A stretch of DNA of 64,000 bases from Citreicella sp. C3M06 (GTDB lineage: Bacteria; Pseudomonadota; Alphaproteobacteria; Rhodobacterales; Rhodobacteraceae), in the NCBI RefSeq assembly GCF_018860705.1, contig NZ_JAHKQA010000007.1:1-64000 (forward strand), in the 5' to 3' direction. The translations under genes and the position numbers were made by a program. The notes under the pieces were generated by a model. It worked only from the letters and a program-made list of their open reading frames with translations, searched no databases and was not told where the DNA came from. Positions 37,450-44,262 of the stretch are shown piece by piece; within the stretch, counting starts at the first letter, position 1, and every line of letters begins with the position of its first letter.

Positions 37450-37525
37450 GCCGGTGTAGCTCAGCTGGTAGAGCACGTCATTCGTAATGATGGGGTCGTA
37501 GGTTCGAGTCCTATCACCGGCACCA
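37450..37525 (+). tRNA. tRNA-Thr (anticodon CGU)
   Basis: The 76 nt fold as a standard cloverleaf: acceptor GCCGGTG pairing with CACCGGC, D-arm GCTCAGCTGGTAGAGC, anticodon loop TTCGTAA with anticodon CGT (reads ACG, threonine), T-arm TAGGTTCGAGTCCTA, discriminator A and encoded CCA (37523-37525). It stands alone 45 nt after hemY. As an ANN-decoding tRNA it is a substrate for the TsaD/TsaE t6A pathway encoded in this window. Confidence 0.97.
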
Positions 37526-37947: not shown

Positions 37948-40011
37948 TCAGACCGGCATGTGGTCTTCGGCGGCACGGGACAGCCAGCTGGTCACGTCAA
38001 CCATCCGGCCATCCCGCCCGCAAATCGTCACGCCGACCGCGTGGCCGCTTCCCTCGATCAGAATGCGGTCGCCGTCGAAACTGGTAAACCGCAGACTGAC
38101 CGGATCGGCAGAGGTCAGCATCTGTTCCTGCAGGATCGTCAGGGCGATCCGTTCTCCCAACCTCAGCCCCTCGCTGGCGTCGCTGAAAAAATGCACGCCT
38201 GCCATGCAACCGGCTTGGGCGAGGTTGCCGGCCAGCTTGTCGAGCTCTCCCTGGATCGTGAGATGTTTGCTGCCCGGCGCCAGAACCAGATCGGCGCCGC
38301 TGCGCGCCGGGTCGATTCCATCGAGGCCAGAGATGACGCAGGGTTGCAGCGCGTCGCCAAGACCGATGCTGTCCATCGGGCGCTCTGTCCAGCCGTCTTC
38401 GCAGGTGAACATCTCGAACCGGGCCTTGAGCATGGTGACGCAGGCCCCGGCAACAGTTGCGGGCGCGGCTCCGTGCGAAGGAGTCATGGGCGATCCGTCG
38501 ATCCATACCATCGGCATCAGAAGGCTTTGCGCCCCGTCGTGCGATAGGCCAGTCAGAGGGTAGCCGTTTTGGGGATCTTTATGCGCCGCAAGCTGCGCGG
38601 CATTATGCGCCGCAACAGGGGCAAGCAGGCCGGTCCGCTCCAGCCCGTCGAGCATCAGCCGCAGTTGGCGCTGCATGTCCTGTGTCAGCCTGCCGGGACG
38701 CCCATTCGCGACCTTGTCGAGCATCGCCGCTAGGCGTTCGGGGCGCCCACGGCGATGGATGTGAAACGCCTGTCGCCGCGCCGCCTTGGCCGCGTGAGAG
38801 GCGGCAATGGCGAGGCTGGACAACAGATCGAGGGCGGCGACCTCGCCGCGGGTGCCTTGCGCCTGAGCGCCGGAGCGAGGCGCGCCTTGGCCGAGCAGGA
38901 TCAACGCCGCGGTGGTGCAATGCTGTGAGATCTGGTCGAGCCGTGCGCAGGCGGCCAGATGCCGCGGCGTGGTGATAAACCCGCGCTCTGGCGCAAGCGC
39001 CTGCAAATGCCCGAGATTTGCGCCCTGCTGCGCATCAAGCCAGCTTTGCGTATCGACCATGTGATCGACGCCGTGCGGATAGCGTCCGACCCGCTGGTCG
39101 ATGTCCTGCACCCCAAGGGAAACACGGCCGCGGCGCTGCTCTGTGGGGGTGCGCCCTGTTCCGACAAGCAGGAATTGCGACAGGGCGGGGCCGCGATCGT
39201 CGTTGCGCGTGGCGCCCTGAAACAGCGGTCGGATCGCATGCTGCCCCTGCTGGTCAAAACGGGTTGCGCGGCGCTCTGTGGCGCGGGGGCCGATGCCGCA
39301 GGGGGTCACGCCAAGGTTCAGGAACGGCAGGCTGCCAAGCGCTTGCGTCAGCGCATCGACGCTGAGCCCGCAGGCAAGCACGCGATCGCTGCCCGCGGTG
39401 ATCTCGGAAAACGGCACGTCGCGCAGCAGCGCCAGCGCGTAAAGTTCGGCCATCTCCGCGATCAGCTCGGCCGAGCCCAGCGTGGGGGCGGCTCCGGTGG
39501 CGATGTCGCCCGGATCGGCCCCCTGAAGATCGAACAGATGCCCGGCGCGCGGGCCGTCCCAATCCCGTGGCTCGATGGGGTTGCCGTCACGGCGCGTGCA
39601 ACGCCACGGCTCGCGATAGTCGGGCTTGGGGCGATACCATGCGGGGGTGTGGCCGCCGCGCACGCCCGCTGCCTGCGGGCCGAGCGGTACGTCGAAATCA
39701 TGGGCGAGGCCAGCCCGCCCCGGCTGCGTGATCGCCCTCACGAAGGCGCGGTAGGCGCGCGGGTCGACAAAGCCATCGGAATCATGGGGCAGACCCTTGG
39801 TGAAGGCCAGCGGCCACAGCTCGGCATGCCGTGCGTCTTCGCCATTGGTCGGGCTGATCTGTGGCGCGCGGCTGGCGGCGATCAGCGCGGCGGTTTCGCG
39901 AATCTCGCAGGACTTGAGGTGGCGTTCTGCCGGACCAGTGTCGGAGCCGGTATGGTGCTGATAGTCTCGAAAATCATCCATCGCGTCATCTTCCCCTGTC
40001 GAGCGCCGCAT
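37948..40011 (-). CDS. Vanadium-haloperoxidase-like protein with degenerate active site
   Basis: A 687-residue protein. KGLPHDSDGFVD, HLFDLQGADPGDIA and AELIAEMAELYALALLRDVP are hallmarks of bacterial vanadium-dependent haloperoxidases (PAP2 superfamily). The vanadate pocket is degraded. The lysine expected 8 residues before Arg423 is Ala415; the SGH triplet normally in HPSYGSGHATVAG is Ala515-Ala516-Pro517 (TPSHGAAPATVAG); the arginine 6 residues before His607 is Gly601. Only Arg423 and His607 of the seven classical ligand positions remain. The frame is intact and surrounding sequence is well conserved, so this looks like a maintained pseudoenzyme, not a dead gene. ATG 40011 has GGGAGG upstream; ATG 39981 is an alternative. 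No signal peptide is apparent. Divergent from the regulator - PAP2 - protease unit. Confidence 0.78.
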   Translation of the reverse strand: MRRSTGEDDAMDDFRDYQHHTGSDTGPAERHLKSCEIRETAALIAASRAPQISPTNGEDARHAELWPLAFTKGLPHDSDGFVDPRAYRAFVRAITQPGRAGLAHDFDVPLGPQAAGVRGGHTPAWYRPKPDYREPWRCTRRDGNPIEPRDWDGPRAGHLFDLQGADPGDIATGAAPTLGSAELIAEMAELYALALLRDVPFSEITAGSDRVLACGLSVDALTQALGSLPFLNLGVTPCGIGPRATERRATRFDQQGQHAIRPLFQGATRNDDRGPALSQFLLVGTGRTPTEQRRGRVSLGVQDIDQRVGRYPHGVDHMVDTQSWLDAQQGANLGHLQALAPERGFITTPRHLAACARLDQISQHCTTAALILLGQGAPRSGAQAQGTRGEVAALDLLSSLAIAASHAAKAARRQAFHIHRRGRPERLAAMLDKVANGRPGRLTQDMQRQLRLMLDGLERTGLLAPVAAHNAAQLAAHKDPQNGYPLTGLSHDGAQSLLMPMVWIDGSPMTPSHGAAPATVAGACVTMLKARFEMFTCEDGWTERPMDSIGLGDALQPCVISGLDGIDPARSGADLVLAPGSKHLTIQGELDKLAGNLAQAGCMAGVHFFSDASEGLRLGERIALTILQEQMLTSADPVSLRFTSFDGDRILIEGSGHAVGVTICGRDGRMVDVTSWLSRAAEDHMPV

Positions 40012-40135
40012 TCGCGCCCCCTCCCAAGCATCGTTTCGCCAATGGATTCACCGGCACAGGGGAAAAAATGGGGAATTCACGGACCATTTTCGGGGAAAAA
40101 CCGAGGAAACCTCTCAAAAGTCGGGAATTGCGTGT

Positions 40136-40163
40136 TTGACAGAAGCTGACCAAAGGTAAAGCA
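40136..40163 (+). promoter_or_regulatory. Possible promoter of the regulator - PAP2 - protease unit
   Basis: A perfect TTGACA hexamer at 40136-40141 lies 62 nt before the regulator start; 16 nt on is a poor -10 match (about 40158-40163). It sits in the 192-nt AT-richer gap between two divergent genes, so it would be the natural place for a promoter, but only the -35 element is convincing. Confidence 0.35.
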
Positions 40164-40203
40164 TCGGTTAACAAATTTCAGTACGCGTATTGGAGGCATG
40201 GGC

Positions 40204-41832
40204 ATGAACCGGCCCGGTGATCGTTACAGATTGCGCCTTTTCGGACCGTTCGAGCTGCGCGCTCCGGACGGGCGGGCGGTGACGCTTGGCCGCAAGGCAC
40301 AGGGGCTGGTGGCGATCCTTGCCTGTCAGGATGGGCGGGCCGTGCCGCGTGTTCGGCTTCAGGATCTTCTGTGGTCGCTCAGCGGCCCGGAGCATGGCCG
40401 CGACAGCCTGAAGAAATGCCTGCGCCAGCTGCGCACTGCGCTTGGCGAGGATGCCGATGGATTTGTGCTTTGCCGTACCGACGGAGTGGCCCTGAACAAG
40501 GCCGCAATCGACTGCGATCTGGAACAGGTTTCTCCAGAGGGCGCATTTCTTGAGGGGCTCGATCTGAACGATCCCGAATTCGAGGATTGGCTGCGCGAGA
40601 CGCGCTCCCGGCTCAGACGGCCGCGCAGCGTGGTGGTCGCCGGGCCGGGCCGCGACGCTGGCTCGCGGCTGCGCATCGCGGTAGGGGCGCTGCGCACGCT
40701 GCCTCAGGACATGCTGGCCGAGATGGGCGCGGGGATGCTGCTGGGCCGGCTGGTGTCGTTGCTGTCGCAGAACGATCTGATCGACCTGCGCGATCTGCGC
40801 GACGCCGACCTGCAAAGCCTTGGCGGGGCGGACGCGCGGCTTGCCAGCCGGGCGATGACCTCTGGCGACCGGATCTGCGTGCAGCTTGCGCTGATTGCGC
40901 TGGCCAGTGGCCGGGTGATCTGGTCCGAAGACGTGGTGCTGCCCGTCGATACCGGCACCGATCGCGCCGCACTGGCGGGCACGGTCGCCCGGCTGGCCGG
41001 GCAGATCGAGCGCGCCGTCTGCCGCGAGGATCGCGAGACCGGCGATGGCAGCCGCGCCGCGTCGCGGCTGATGCTCGACGGGATCGAACGGCTGTTCCAC
41101 CTTGGCCCCAACAACACCGACGCCGCTGTCGAGCGCTTTCGCCGCGCCGCCGCCATCGAGTCGCGTGGCAGCTTCAAGGCGTGGCTGGCGCTGACCACCG
41201 CGTTTCGGCTGGAAAGCAGCAAGGGCCGCGACGCCCCTGCCTTGCGGGACGAGGCCGAACAGCTGACCGCAGAGGCACTGGACGAGGCGCCCGACAATCC
41301 CTTGGTGCGCTCGCTTCTGGCGCATGTCAGCGGCTTCGTGCTGCGGGATTTCGACCGGGCGAATGCGTTGCTGACCCCGCTCGAGGGCAGCGATCCGGCA
41401 ACCCCGATGTATCATTTCGCGCTGTCGATGCTGCGCTTCTACGAAGGGCGGCTGGACGCTGCGCAACAGGCCGCGGTGACAGCGCGCCAACGCGGCGGCA
41501 GCCATCCCTATGCCTATGCTTTCTCGACCGGGCTGAGCATGATCGCGCTGTGTCGCGGCGATGCGGCGCAGGCCGTCGCGCATGGGCGCGAGGCGCGTGG
41601 CCTGATGCCGCTGCGCAGCCGTCCCTACGAGCCAACGCTGCGCTATCTCACGGCGGCGCAGGCGCAGGCGGGGCAATTGGCCGACGCGCGCAATACGTGG
41701 GACGCGCTGTGCCGCGCCGACCCCCACAACGATGCCAAGAACTTGCGGGACAGCGATTTTCCAGTGCCCGCCGAACATGCCCGCGAAGCGCTTGGCCGCA
41801 GTTTTCGCGCGCTTCATGCTGCCGTGACCTGA
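40204..41832 (+). CDS. Winged-helix / TolB-like / TPR transcriptional regulator
   Basis: A 542-residue soluble regulator. Residues about 8-100 are an OmpR/SARP-like winged helix (LRLFGPFELRAPDGRAVTLG; LLWSLSGPEHGRDSLKKCLR). Residues about 155-275 follow the pattern of the TolB-like module of CadC-type and adenylate-cyclase-type regulators (GDRICVQLALIALASGRVIW then SEDVVLP). The remainder is TPR-like helices up to the C-terminus. There is no transmembrane helix or receiver domain, so signal input is presumably through the C-terminal repeats. ATG 40204 is preferred to 40198 because GGAGG at 40192-40196 is only 1 nt from the latter. PAP2 starts 14 nt after its stop. Confidence 0.75.
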   Translation: MNRPGDRYRLRLFGPFELRAPDGRAVTLGRKAQGLVAILACQDGRAVPRVRLQDLLWSLSGPEHGRDSLKKCLRQLRTALGEDADGFVLCRTDGVALNKAAIDCDLEQVSPEGAFLEGLDLNDPEFEDWLRETRSRLRRPRSVVVAGPGRDAGSRLRIAVGALRTLPQDMLAEMGAGMLLGRLVSLLSQNDLIDLRDLRDADLQSLGGADARLASRAMTSGDRICVQLALIALASGRVIWSEDVVLPVDTGTDRAALAGTVARLAGQIERAVCREDRETGDGSRAASRLMLDGIERLFHLGPNNTDAAVERFRRAAAIESRGSFKAWLALTTAFRLESSKGRDAPALRDEAEQLTAEALDEAPDNPLVRSLLAHVSGFVLRDFDRANALLTPLEGSDPATPMYHFALSMLRFYEGRLDAAQQAAVTARQRGGSHPYAYAFSTGLSMIALCRGDAAQAVAHGREARGLMPLRSRPYEPTLRYLTAAQAQAGQLADARNTWDALCRADPHNDAKNLRDSDFPVPAEHAREALGRSFRALHAAVT

Positions 41833-41846
41833 GACAGGAGCCGCCC

Positions 41847-42797
41847 GTGCCGATCCCCCCATTGCCCCATCCACTTGCCGGGTTCGACGGCGCCAGCAAG
41901 CTGCGGCTTGGCAAGCAGGGCGACATATTCGAGCCGCTGGCCGCACCGGCGCCGCTTGCGGCCACGCGCGGCGCAACAATGCGCATTGCCTCGCTCGCAA
42001 GCGTGAAAAGCGCGACCAGCCTTGGCGGAGCCCGTGCGCAGGCCCAAGCACAGGCACAGGCCCAAGCGCAGGCTCAGGCTCAGGCGCAGACAGCGGGCGG
42101 CGGTTTTCCCGATCAGGTGCTGTCGACATGGGCGGAGCTGCGGGAACTGGCGCTGCTCGGCGATCGCATTGCGCCGGATGGCAGCGGGGCGCTCCTCGAG
42201 GCCGGACGCGCCTTTCCCTTCGAGGCGATCTGTCTGCCACCGCCCCCCGGCGCCGATGAGACCGCCGCCGAAATCGAGACCCTGCGCGGCTATCTTCAGG
42301 ATCTGCGCAAGGACAGCTACCGGCAGGCCGAGATCGACCGCCAGAAGACCGCCAACCATCCAATCGACGTGCTGCGCCCGCTGGGGATCGACGGCATCGG
42401 CGGCTATGACAACACCGTCCGGCTGATCCGCACGCTGCTGCAACTGTCAGAGCGCATCGGCTATGTCTACAAGGCGCGGTTTTCCCGGCCGCGCCCCTCG
42501 GCGCTGGATCCGACGCTGCGGCCCTTTCTGTCGAATCCACCGCACGCGGCCTATCCGAGCAACCACGCCTTCCAGAATTTCACCCTCGCCGAAGTGCTGA
42601 ACCGCGCGCTGCCCGAACTGCCCGCGACGGTCGAGCTGTTTCACGTGGCGCGGCGCATCGGTGAAAACCGCGAACACGCGGGCATCCATTACCCCTCGGA
42701 CACCGACGCTGGCGAGATGCTGGCGCGGCAGATGGCCCCCTATTTCATGTATGTCTGCCGCTCCGCGATCCGCGCGGCGCAGCAGGACTGGCGCTGA
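41847..42797 (+). CDS. PAP2-superfamily phosphatase / haloperoxidase-fold enzyme
   Basis: A 316-residue protein. The catalytic set of the PAP2/vanadium-haloperoxidase superfamily is in order: Lys209-x6-Arg216-Pro (KARFSRPRP), Ser238-Asn239-His240 (AAYPSNHAF), Arg275-x5-His281-x3-Asp285 (REHAGIHYPSD). Asn239 replaces the usual Gly of the SGH motif. There is no signal peptide or membrane helix, unlike lipid phosphatases, so a soluble acid-phosphatase or haloperoxidase-type activity is more likely. Residues 64-81 are nine Ala-Gln repeats, a probable flexible linker between an unrecognised N-terminal segment and the enzyme domain. Start is GTG 41847 with CAGGAG upstream. It lies 14 nt after the regulator and 10 nt before the protease gene. 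Confidence 0.78.
   Translation: MPIPPLPHPLAGFDGASKLRLGKQGDIFEPLAAPAPLAATRGATMRIASLASVKSATSLGGARAQAQAQAQAQAQAQAQAQTAGGGFPDQVLSTWAELRELALLGDRIAPDGSGALLEAGRAFPFEAICLPPPPGADETAAEIETLRGYLQDLRKDSYRQAEIDRQKTANHPIDVLRPLGIDGIGGYDNTVRLIRTLLQLSERIGYVYKARFSRPRPSALDPTLRPFLSNPPHAAYPSNHAFQNFTLAEVLNRALPELPATVELFHVARRIGENREHAGIHYPSDTDAGEMLARQMAPYFMYVCRSAIRAAQQDWR
42036..42089 (+). repeat. Nine-copy hexanucleotide repeat encoding Ala-Gln
   Basis: Nine tandem hexamers of the form GCN-CAR encode (Ala-Gln)9 in the PAP2-like protein. Synonymous positions vary (gcgcag, gcccaa, gcacag, gctcag), so the array is old or selected at protein level, yet it could still expand or contract by slippage in frame. Confidence 0.9.
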
Positions 42798-42807
42798 AGG
42801 TGATGAT

Positions 42808-44262
42808 ATGATGGACGAACCCGGGTATGGGCAACATTTCCTGTGGCATCTCGCACGGATCGGCGCGTTGCAACCTGTCGGAACCGCCCCTGAAACATGG
42901 CAGCCCAGCCCGGCCTGGGTGGCGCTGCTGGACCACGCAAAGCCGCTCAGGATTGCGCTGATCGACAATGGGGCGGCGCTGGATCATCCCAACCTGCAAG
43001 AGCCGGGGCGCCCCTGTCTGCACCAGCCGATCGAATTTGCCGCCCATGTGCAGGGCACGCTCTATGCCGACGATCCCGATGCTGCCGTGCCACGGTTCGA
43101 CCGGCTGCCTGCCGCGTTGGCGCATATCGGCATCGACGATCCCGCGGCGTTCTTCGACCGCCCGCTGACGCCGCAGCTTGGCGATGCCATCCACGGCTAT
43201 CTGGCCGGAACGCTGAGCCCGGCGCGGATCGACCTGCCATCGCCCTCGGCCCGTTTCGCCGCGCATGGCACCTGCTGTGCGGGGCTGCTGGCCGGGCGGC
43301 CCGAACCCGAAGGGGCAACGCATCGCAGCCCGGTGACGCTGCCCTATTACGGGGTGAACCCGGTGGCGCAGGTGATTCCCATCGCCACGGTCTACAGCCC
43401 TGCCTACTGGCCGCTGGTGATGGGGCTGCTGTATGCCATCGACCGGGGCGCCGATGTGATCCTGATGCCGCGCGCCGCCGAAGACATGATCGCCCCCGCC
43501 GATTACCTCGCGGTCTGGGGGGAGGACGGCAAACCAAAACTCGGCGAAGACGCCGATCCGCGCGGCAACGGCAACCTGACCGACGCGGCGCGCTACGCCG
43601 ACAAGCTGCTGTTCGAAGAACTGCTGCTGAAAATCGCTGCGCATGTGCCGGTGATCCTTGCCGCCGGGAACAGCGGCCAGAGCCGTCTGGAATATCCCGC
43701 CTCTCTGGCCGCGCCGGACAATGCACTGATCACCGTGGGGGCGGTGAACAGCCTTGGCAGGATTGCTAGCTATTCCTCGGGGCAGGCAGACGGGCCGACG
43801 GTGCTTGCGCCTTCGGATGATCGTGAAGAGATTTCAAACGCCTATTTCCGCCATTCTGACACATCGTGGCGGGCGCGGCGGCTGGATCTGTCCGCTGTCG
43901 AGGGCCGGACCGATGCCGAATCCGACTATTCGCCTTACGGAGTGCTGGCGACCGACATTCCCGGACCTTACGGCTATGATGCAAGCACGACATCCGATCT
44001 CGACCTGACCGAAGATCGCCTGCCTGCCAGCGTGATCGCTGACCGGATGGGGCAGGAAAGCCTGCCGCGCGGGCTTTATACCTTGTTCGGAGGCACCTCG
44101 GCGGCATCAACCATCGTTGCGGGCATCGTCTCGCTGATCAAGGCCAGCCCAGCCGGGAAAGATCTGGATGGCCATGCCATGAAGCAGAAACTGTTGGCCA
44201 TATCGCAGGACAATGCGCCGCTTGCGCTCGACGCGCTTCAGGCCGCGGACGAGCCGGACTGA
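42808..44262 (+). CDS. Subtilisin-like (S8) serine protease, apparently non-secreted
   Basis: A 484-residue protease with all four catalytic positions of the S8 family: Asp53 (IALIDNGAALDHPNL), His153 (FAAHGTCCAGLLAG), oxyanion Asn288 (VILAAGNSG) and Ser431 (FGGTSAASTIVAGI). The last motif has SAAS where most subtilases have SMAAP. There is no signal peptide and no obvious prodomain: the Asp motif lies only about 50 residues from the start, so a cytoplasmic or co-secreted role is suggested. The insert between His and Asn is long (about 135 residues). ATG 42808 has GAAGG upstream and is 10 nt after the PAP2 stop, so it is clearly co-transcribed. Substrate unknown; the neighbouring proteins are candidates. 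Confidence 0.85.
   Translation: MMDEPGYGQHFLWHLARIGALQPVGTAPETWQPSPAWVALLDHAKPLRIALIDNGAALDHPNLQEPGRPCLHQPIEFAAHVQGTLYADDPDAAVPRFDRLPAALAHIGIDDPAAFFDRPLTPQLGDAIHGYLAGTLSPARIDLPSPSARFAAHGTCCAGLLAGRPEPEGATHRSPVTLPYYGVNPVAQVIPIATVYSPAYWPLVMGLLYAIDRGADVILMPRAAEDMIAPADYLAVWGEDGKPKLGEDADPRGNGNLTDAARYADKLLFEELLLKIAAHVPVILAAGNSGQSRLEYPASLAAPDNALITVGAVNSLGRIASYSSGQADGPTVLAPSDDREEISNAYFRHSDTSWRARRLDLSAVEGRTDAESDYSPYGVLATDIPGPYGYDASTTSDLDLTEDRLPASVIADRMGQESLPRGLYTLFGGTSAASTIVAGIVSLIKASPAGKDLDGHAMKQKLLAISQDNAPLALDALQAADEPD

What the first reader, a model, noticed from the sequence alone, without database searches (positions are those of the whole stretch)
37948..44262. Candidate undescribed system: degraded haloperoxidase diverging from regulator - PAP2 enzyme - subtilase unit
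Seen: four adjacent genes with no housekeeping link. A VHPO-like protein diverges across a 192-nt gap from three tightly spaced genes (14 and 10 nt) encoding a wHTH/TolB-like/TPR regulator, a PAP2-fold enzyme with a conserved Lys/Arg/His set, and an S8 protease with intact triad but no signal peptide. Two members of one superfamily, one catalytically plausible and one not, flank a regulator. Inference: the pseudoenzyme may act as a sensor, scaffold or substrate, with the protease processing a partner. I know of no described system with this composition.
Basis: partly seen in the sequence, partly recalled or inferred. Interest (0 to 1): 0.7.

Follow-up and report, generated by a model that had tools for sequence, protein, structure and literature searches.

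The report
Regulator, repeat-tailed phosphatase, protease gene trio
Three neighbouring bacterial genes - a regulator, a phosphatase carrying a stretch of repeated short amino-acid units, and a protease - travel together through many bacteria, sometimes with a peroxidase beside them, and seem to form an undescribed system.

Summary
Regulator (REG), PAP2 and S8 genes form a conserved unit: all 9 other family genomes found with this S8 keep the order, and gene models over 87 loci show PAP2 in 87, S8 in 86, REG in 84. Distances agree (r 0.92-0.955); PAP2-S8 gaps have a median of 10 nt. Two genomes fuse PAP2 and S8.

Five loci of one clade have Peptidase_A4 in place of S8.

The haloperoxidase is a facultative partner: 9 of 80 loci hold a peroxidase, vanadium or haem type, and 8 of 20 loci chosen for a peroxidase carry REG plus array-PAP2. 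Its decay looks lineage-specific; the Salipiger aestuarii copy has an intact site, so a conserved 'pseudoenzyme sensor' is not supported. Function is inferred only: a regulated hydrolase/oxidant module whose PAP2 may replace the protease's propeptide.

The parts
40198..41832 (+). REG: winged-helix-like N-terminus plus TPR repeats, one-component regulator (544 aa)
   Evidence: Pfam TPR_19 and Trans_reg_C weak, below cut-off; 46 relatives at E <= 0.01: Trans_reg_C 14, TPR_19 31, Guanylate_cyc 4
41847..42797 (+). PAP2 phosphatase-fold enzyme with an N-terminal array (316 aa, GTG start)
   Evidence: AlphaFold model m5fe9b65118d2, mean pLDDT 81.6, from residue 131 on the 10-residue blocks average 90-98
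42036..42089 (+). (Ala-Gln)9 array, mixed synonymous codons
   Evidence: sequence; arrays in REG-linked PAP2
42471..42701 (+). PAP2 active-site residues K209, R216-P217, S238-N239-H240, R275, H281, D285
   Evidence: K, P, S, N, H, R, H, D identical in 87 of 87 gene models; R216 in 86 of 87
42808..44262 (+). S8 subtilase starting at the mature domain (LWHL motif), no propeptide or signal peptide seen (484 aa)
   Evidence: D53, H153, N288, S431 identical in 86 of 86 models; model m3d28d883cc21, mean pLDDT 84.2
37948..39981 (-). vanadium haloperoxidase-like protein with a degraded active site; facultative partner, probably decaying in this lineage
   Evidence: divergent copy with intact site in L021
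39982..40197 (.). divergent intergenic region between VHPO and REG, probably holding both promoters
   Evidence: no repeat of 14 nt or more; promoters not tested

Best explanation
The window holds one copy of a co-inherited three-gene module: a one-component regulator, a PAP2 phosphatase with an N-terminal short-period array, and a protease made without its own propeptide; a peroxidase gene sits beside some copies and seems to be on the way out here. Shown: the unit, its order and tight spacing, invariant catalytic residues, the array rule, two PAP2-S8 fusions, a second protease class in another clade, and linkage to two unrelated peroxidase types. Inferred: REG senses a signal and switches the operon on. 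The PAP2 protein is translated just before the protease and, as in the fusions, takes the place of the missing propeptide, holding or assembling the protease; the array drives self-assembly of that complex, which would explain why repetition is conserved but its composition is not. The released phosphatase and protease, with hypohalous acid from the peroxidase where present, would work as a degradative and oxidative cocktail against competitors or the cell itself. The last two steps are the least certain.
For: Order and presence: 9 of 9 other S8-bearing family genomes, 9 genera; gene models over 87 loci: PAP2 87, S8 86, REG 84, while the next most shared gene cluster is in 20 loci. Spacing: PAP2-S8 gap median 10 nt, 97.7% of 86 at most 60 nt; REG-PAP2 median 27.5 nt, n=82. 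Co-inheritance r 0.92-0.955 over 83 loci. Fusions L156 and L158 carry both Pfam domains above cut-off. Array: 118 of 120 PAP2 with REG nearby have a perfect array of 8 aa or more (sets A, F, P, C; 4 of these loci occur in both A and F); the two exceptions are L035, imperfect NK array, and L224, whose REG hit looks by eye like an AraC-TPR protein. Six of 6 REG-less set-C PAP2 lack one. Arrays of 12 aa or more occur in 4 of 1514 other gene models, 2 of these being the fusions. All 67 arrays examined use mixed codons. Third gene Peptidase_A4 in 5 loci, E 2.2e-18 to 1.5e-28. Catalytic Asp at a median position of 61, too early for a propeptide in front. Peroxidase linkage: 9 of 80 and 8 of 20.
Against: No function was tested. 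No peroxidase was found in 71 of 80 trio loci and no VHPO or haem type in any of the 32 class/phylum loci, so it is not essential. Array composition differs too much to name one physical role; AlphaFold gives the window array only as a low-confidence helix. The propeptide-replacement step rests on two fusions and on the missing propeptide. Most members lack a hydrophobic N-terminus, so where the enzymes act is unknown. A protease directly beside PAP2 is not universal: of the 25 array-bearing set-C loci, L217 and L220 have an S8 on the far side of REG instead and L219 shows none; in set P the L160 protein is below the S8 cut-off and L175 has no identified protease. Where the protease is Peptidase_A4, a specific PAP2-S8 fit cannot hold. 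In 4 of 46 REG proteins a cyclase domain is found, so DNA binding is not universal. The only other genome of the window's genus in the sample, G088, has no S8 match.
Confidence: 0.38

Rival explanations
1. A nutrient-scavenging operon: phosphatase and protease liberate phosphate and peptides under REG control, and the array is a cell-surface or polymer anchor.
For: PAP2 resembles class A acid phosphatases; phosphatase plus protease is a usual scavenging pair (general knowledge).
Against: 0 of 87 PAP2 and 3 of 86 S8 models have a hydrophobic N-terminus, whereas the two REG-less PAP2 relatives measured (L221, L222) have one. Peroxidases and, in L027, a nuclease domain nearby do not fit scavenging well.
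Confidence: 0.2
2. An anti-phage or abortive-infection module: REG (sometimes with a cyclase) senses infection and releases protease and phosphatase inside the cell.
For: Cytoplasmic-looking enzymes, variable flanks, patchy distribution (10 of 248 genomes incl. the window's own); cyclase domain in 4 of 46 REG.
Against: No PADLOC match for any of the four proteins. The neighbours were not surveyed for defence genes, so this is weak evidence.
Confidence: 0.15
3. One reading: VHPO pseudoenzyme, REG, PAP2 and S8 form one four-part system in which the inactive VHPO is a sensor, scaffold or substrate.
For: VHPO lies divergent from REG in both the window and L021; its frame is open over 677 codons despite the lost site, so some selection may remain. 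L028 also has an altered VHPO beside the trio.
Against: L021 VHPO keeps the site residues and the window copy shows lineage-specific divergence; no peroxidase was found in 71 of 80 loci; in others a haem peroxidase stands there.
Confidence: 0.07
4. The arrays are neutral microsatellites with no role.
For: Units change freely within clades.
Against: Arrays follow REG linkage closely, are rare in other gene models (4 of 1514), and use mixed synonymous codons in 67 of 67 cases, which points to selection on the peptide.
Confidence: 0.05

Closest known systems
Vanadium-dependent bromoperoxidases (5lpc)
   Same: The window VHPO is homologous over residues 58-640
   Different: Three of the site motifs are broken in the window copy; I know of no described link to an array-PAP2 and a protease
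Class A non-specific acid phosphatases (PhoN; acid phosphatase 7f18)
   Same: PAP2 active-site set K-RP-S.H-R-H-D
   Different: PSNH in place of PSGH in the core clade, an N-terminal array, no hydrophobic N-terminus, beside REG and usually a protease
S8 subtilases, including type VII mycosin
   Same: Catalytic tetrad; weak hit to the mycosin model TIGR03921 (45.5 bits against a cut-off of 278.75)
   Different: No hydrophobic N-terminus and no room for a propeptide; type VII secretion genes were not searched for
Peptidase_A4 (glutamic peptidase G1, eqolisin; the G1 name is recalled)
   Same: Takes the protease position in L209, L212, L213, L215, L216
   Different: A different peptidase family from S8; found in a separate PAP2 clade
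wHTH/TPR and cyclase/TPR one-component regulators (recalled)
   Same: Domain layout of REG
   Different: Here tied to one PAP2-protease pair

Membership tests
Vanadium haloperoxidase (window VHPO) | Homology over the whole fold | tested here: met
   5lpc E 1.4e-69 over residues 58-640
Vanadium haloperoxidase (window VHPO) | Intact vanadate and acid-base residues (K, GH, R, H; roles recalled) | tested here: not met
   K->A, GH->AP, R->G; last His kept. A relative, probably not a working member
PAP2 / class A acid phosphatase | K-RP, S-x-H, R-H-D set | tested here: met
   87 of 87 models for K, P, S, N, H, R, H, D; R216 in 86 of 87
PAP2 / class A acid phosphatase | Canonical PSGH and signal peptide | tested here: not met
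   PSNH in 87 of 87 core models for S-N-H; hydrophobic N-terminus in 0 of 87 models, starts approximate. Phosphatase activity itself is not testable here
Subtilase S8 | Asp-His-Ser triad with oxyanion Asn | tested here: met
   86 of 86; PF00082 above cut-off
T7SS mycosin | Score above the curated cut-off | tested here: not met
   45.5 against 278.75 bits
T7SS mycosin | Lies in a type VII secretion locus | not tested
   no model of type VII genes was run on the neighbours
Known anti-phage defence systems | Match to a PADLOC model | tested here: not met
   0 families for all four proteins at E <= 0.01
Trans_reg_C winged-helix regulator | Match above Pfam cut-off | tested here: inconclusive
   17.2 against 26.2 bits in the window; 14 of 46 relatives match at E <= 0.01
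REG-arrayPAP2-protease unit (defined here) | REG adjacent, array in PAP2, protease next | tested here: met
   window; family-wide

The most novel reading that the evidence does not exclude
A new class of bacterial effector system in which the array is the key: each lineage carries its own repeat unit, used as a homotypic assembly or recognition tag that holds an interchangeable, propeptide-less protease (subtilase or Peptidase_A4) together with the phosphatase until release, with vanadium or haem peroxidase as exchangeable oxidant partner. The fast change of the unit with strict keeping of repetition would then reflect diversifying selection, such as kin or self recognition.
Probability: 0.15. 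Interest if true: 0.9.

Novelty: categorically new. Interest (0 to 1): 0.72.

Why it matters
It would add an unnamed operon type found in many Alphaproteobacteria, with two complete copies elsewhere in the phylum (L245, L246), and it poses a clear puzzle: why should a phosphatase carry a short-period array whose composition varies so widely (34 units) but whose repetition is kept? It also links vanadium haloperoxidases and animal-type haem peroxidases, two unrelated routes that both can make hypohalous acid (general knowledge), to one conserved partner, which gives a handle on the poorly known roles of bacterial haloperoxidases. The pair is small, soluble-looking and easy to test.

Tried and rejected
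Four-gene unit with conserved VHPO: rejected, VHPO found in 0 of the 9 other family trio loci and in 4 of 80 (a fifth locus, L026, has a chloroperoxidase-type one). Conserved pseudoenzyme: not supported. Island integrated at tRNA-Thr 37450-37525: no direct repeat of the tRNA end was reported downstream, so not claimed. PADLOC gave nothing; PHROGs gave one protease family for the S8 (E 2.2e-7) and nothing for the other three. NCBIfam gave only hits far below cut-off. A papain-like guess by eye for the third gene of L175 was not supported and is dropped. A first genome-contig scan with the S8 alone found nothing. A period-2-only array scan first made me think that distant PAP2s lack arrays; with periods 2-6 corrected that. 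In the PAP2 tree the core member L022 falls outside the core clade on a branch of 3.11, probably a wrong sequence piece; I did not resolve it.

Paper searches: searches returned no paper; the others listed papers, none on this gene combination as far as titles and abstract starts show. Lists were capped: one search showed 15 of 36 and 12 of 6,389. I opened no paper.

Limits of the counts: only the best 80 of 158 PAP2 relatives were held. A stricter array threshold (10 aa) gives 72 of 80 PAP2 frames, and 72 of 87 gene models because called starts cut some arrays off; the same clipping may hide arrays in the 1514 other models, which did not include the class/phylum loci. Of 17 genomes with VHPO (incl. 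the window's own) and 34 with the haem type, 10 places each were fetched; the haem set left out G006 and G140, already known to carry the trio, and did not follow rank strictly (G185 skipped). G171 gave one place to each set. The chance estimates are rough: they treat loci as independent, the haem query came from one of the loci counted (G140), and the reverse rate of 0.1 systems per genome is my own guess. Gene models come from a home-made codon caller, so start sites are approximate. Orders of organisms are judged from record titles and recall.
Full report
WHAT IS THERE. The VHPO matches vanadium bromoperoxidase 5lpc at E 1.4e-69, the PAP2 acid phosphatase 7f18 at E 1.8e-15, and the S8 Pfam Peptidase_S8 at E 8.3e-15. 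REG has only weak TPR and Trans_reg_C hits.

THE TRIO IS A UNIT. In 248 family genomes the S8 occurs in 10 at E <= 1e-20, including the window's own; the one other genome of the same genus, G088, has no match. All 9 others, each from a different genus, carry REG, PAP2 and S8 in the same order on one strand. Their flanks differ, except that L015 and L016 share the divergent haem peroxidase. None of the 9 has a VHPO hit (tblastn E <= 1e-3) in the stretch held, which reaches about 3 to 9 kb beyond the trio. With a 10-sequence PAP2 alignment a scan of one genome per species gave 158 relatives, of which the best 80 were held; their titles name Alphaproteobacteria, judged from the genus names. Over 87 loci (80, the window and 6 of the 9) gene models give PAP2 in 87, S8 in 86 and REG in 84; the next most shared cluster, by eye an ABC ATPase family, is in 20 loci. 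L045 lacks S8 and L061 and L086 lack REG on short contigs; L069 shows no REG hit. In L026 REG is on the other strand, with a peroxidase and two small genes between it and PAP2. PAP2-S8 gaps have a median of 10 nt (n=86) and REG-PAP2 gaps of 27.5 nt (n=82). Pairwise distances agree between the three proteins, r 0.92-0.955 over 83 loci.

CATALYTIC RESIDUES. PAP2 keeps K, P, S, N, H, R, H and D in 87 of 87 models and R216 in 86; this core clade has PSNH where acid phosphatases have PSGH (recalled motif). S8 keeps Asp53, His153, Asn288 and Ser431 in 86 of 86, and the N-terminal LWHL motif in 82-84 of 86 for the three residues counted. The catalytic Asp sits at a median position of 61, so the S8 begins at its mature domain. 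A hydrophobic N-terminus was seen in 3 of 86 S8 and 0 of 87 PAP2 models; gene starts are approximate.

THE ARRAY. All 80 PAP2 relatives have a low-complexity stretch before the domain: a perfect run of 8 aa or more in 78, imperfect NK stretches in L035 and L069; at 10 aa or more it is 72 of 80. The window has (AQ)9 at 42036-42089; others have NR, NK, SR, SK, AK, GR, TK and MA. In the more distant loci most units are of period 3 or 4: SGV, NSF, NAE, GGF, GSF, GNT, GGA, DAR, NAD, SGGA, AGR, QTQ and more. One search lists 34 units by period and composition. Counting sets A (80), F (9), P (20) and C (32) of that call, with four loci in both A and F, 118 PAP2 with REG nearby have an array of 8 aa or more and 2 do not (L035; and L224, whose REG hit looks by eye like an AraC-TPR protein); 2 without REG have one (L061, L086, short contigs); 7 without REG have none (L069 and the six REG-less set-C ones). 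Twelve set-P loci have no PAP2. Among 49 short loci that partly repeat set C, 24 have both, 24 neither, and L235 has an array without REG in its 4 kb; the same place with more flank, L254, does have REG. In gene models, period-2 runs of 10 aa or more occur in 72 of 87 PAP2 and 0 of 1237 others, and arrays of 12 aa or more of period 2-6 in 4 of 1514 others, two of them the fusions below. All 67 arrays examined use more than one codon pair, which speaks for selection on the peptide.

FUSIONS AND PROTEASE EXCHANGE. L156 (877 aa) and L158 (924 aa) carry PAP2 and S8 in one protein, with (TK)n and (TH)n arrays. Of the 25 set-C loci with REG and array, 17 have an S8 (core or distant model) beside PAP2, and 5 - L209, L212, L213, L215, L216 - have Peptidase_A4 after it (E 2.2e-18 to 1.5e-28); L217 and L220 have an S8-like gene beyond REG, and L219 shows no protease. 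L245 and L246 are complete and lie outside the class. The five Peptidase_A4 loci group together in the PAP2 tree (support 0.85), and within the distant-S8 group the array unit changes often while repetition stays. In set P, S8 passes the Pfam cut-off next to PAP2 or fused with it in L156, L158, L163, L164 and L171, is below it in L160 and L168, and L175 has no identified protease.

THE PEROXIDASE. Nine of the 80 loci hold one: VHPO in L021, L028, L029 and L076, animal-type haem peroxidase in L022, L025, L027 and L032, and a chloroperoxidase-type VHPO in L026. It is not always divergent from REG: downstream in L028 and L029, upstream on the same strand in L076. VHPO was found in 17 and the haem type in 34 of 394 family genomes. 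Of 20 such places fetched, 8 (5 of 10 VHPO, 3 of 10 haem) have REG and array-PAP2, and L157 REG only. Rough chance estimates are 2.8e-8 for 3 or more of the 10 family trio loci and 3e-22 for 8 or more of 20 (assumptions in Tried and rejected). So the linkage looks real but facultative; no VHPO or haem hit at E <= 1e-4 was found in the 32 class/phylum loci.

DECAY OF THE WINDOW VHPO. The window copy has K->A, GH->AP and R->G; L021, likewise divergent from REG and 59.9% identical, keeps all of these. Of 15 VHPOs, the window's, L028's and L157's have altered sites. The window copy is less similar than L021 to 12 of 13 others. Decay in this lineage is the simplest reading, although the long open frame leaves room for residual function. 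L012 and L025 hold 331-aa remnants of the haem type.

HOW IT MAY WORK. Shown: the unit, spacing, intact sites, the array rule, the fusions, protease exchange and peroxidase linkage. Inferred: REG switches on the operon; PAP2 stands in for the missing propeptide; arrays drive assembly; the output is degradative or oxidative. AlphaFold gives a confident PAP2 domain and a low-confidence helix for the array and a mostly confident S8.

KNOWN OR NEW. No PADLOC match, one PHROGs protease hit for the S8 only, and nine paper searches listed nothing on this combination; only listings and abstract starts were seen, two lists were capped, and most subscription papers are not in the library. The families are known; the system appears undescribed.

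Noticed in passing
window 37450-37525: tRNA-Thr (CGT) lies about 420 nt from the end of the VHPO gene; no copy of its end was reported downstream of the trio.
   Followed up: partly
L017 (=L034) REG, and 4 of 46 REG proteins: A class III nucleotide cyclase domain is found in some REG proteins, in L017 by eye in place of the winged helix.
   Followed up: partly
L027 2065-5850(-); L032 3371-5983(-): Beside the haem peroxidase lie large proteins with Trypsin_2 + Endonuclease_NS + S8, or alpha/beta hydrolase + Trypsin_2.
   Followed up: partly
L044, L046, L048, L049, L053, L058, L071, L083 upstream of REG: A second S8-type protease (557 aa in L049) with two small proteins of about 131 and 89 aa lies upstream of REG in these 8 loci.
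   Followed up: partly
L029 14427-14936(-), L076 4804-5346(+), L156 10214-10696(-), L163 9875-10378(-): A small protein family accompanies VHPO; its L076 member has no Pfam match.
   Followed up: partly
L166, L169, L174: Haem peroxidase loci without REG and PAP2 still have protease genes nearby (S8, M10, trypsin, C1) and, in L169, a nuclease domain and a RoxA-like cytochrome.
   Followed up: no
L158 2985-5759(-): The PAP2-S8 fusion begins with a Tat-like twin-arginine N-terminus (by eye), unlike the window's trio.
   Followed up: no
L250 4085-5923(+) and 9297-11147(-): Two REG-like genes flank one PAP2-S8 pair.
   Followed up: no
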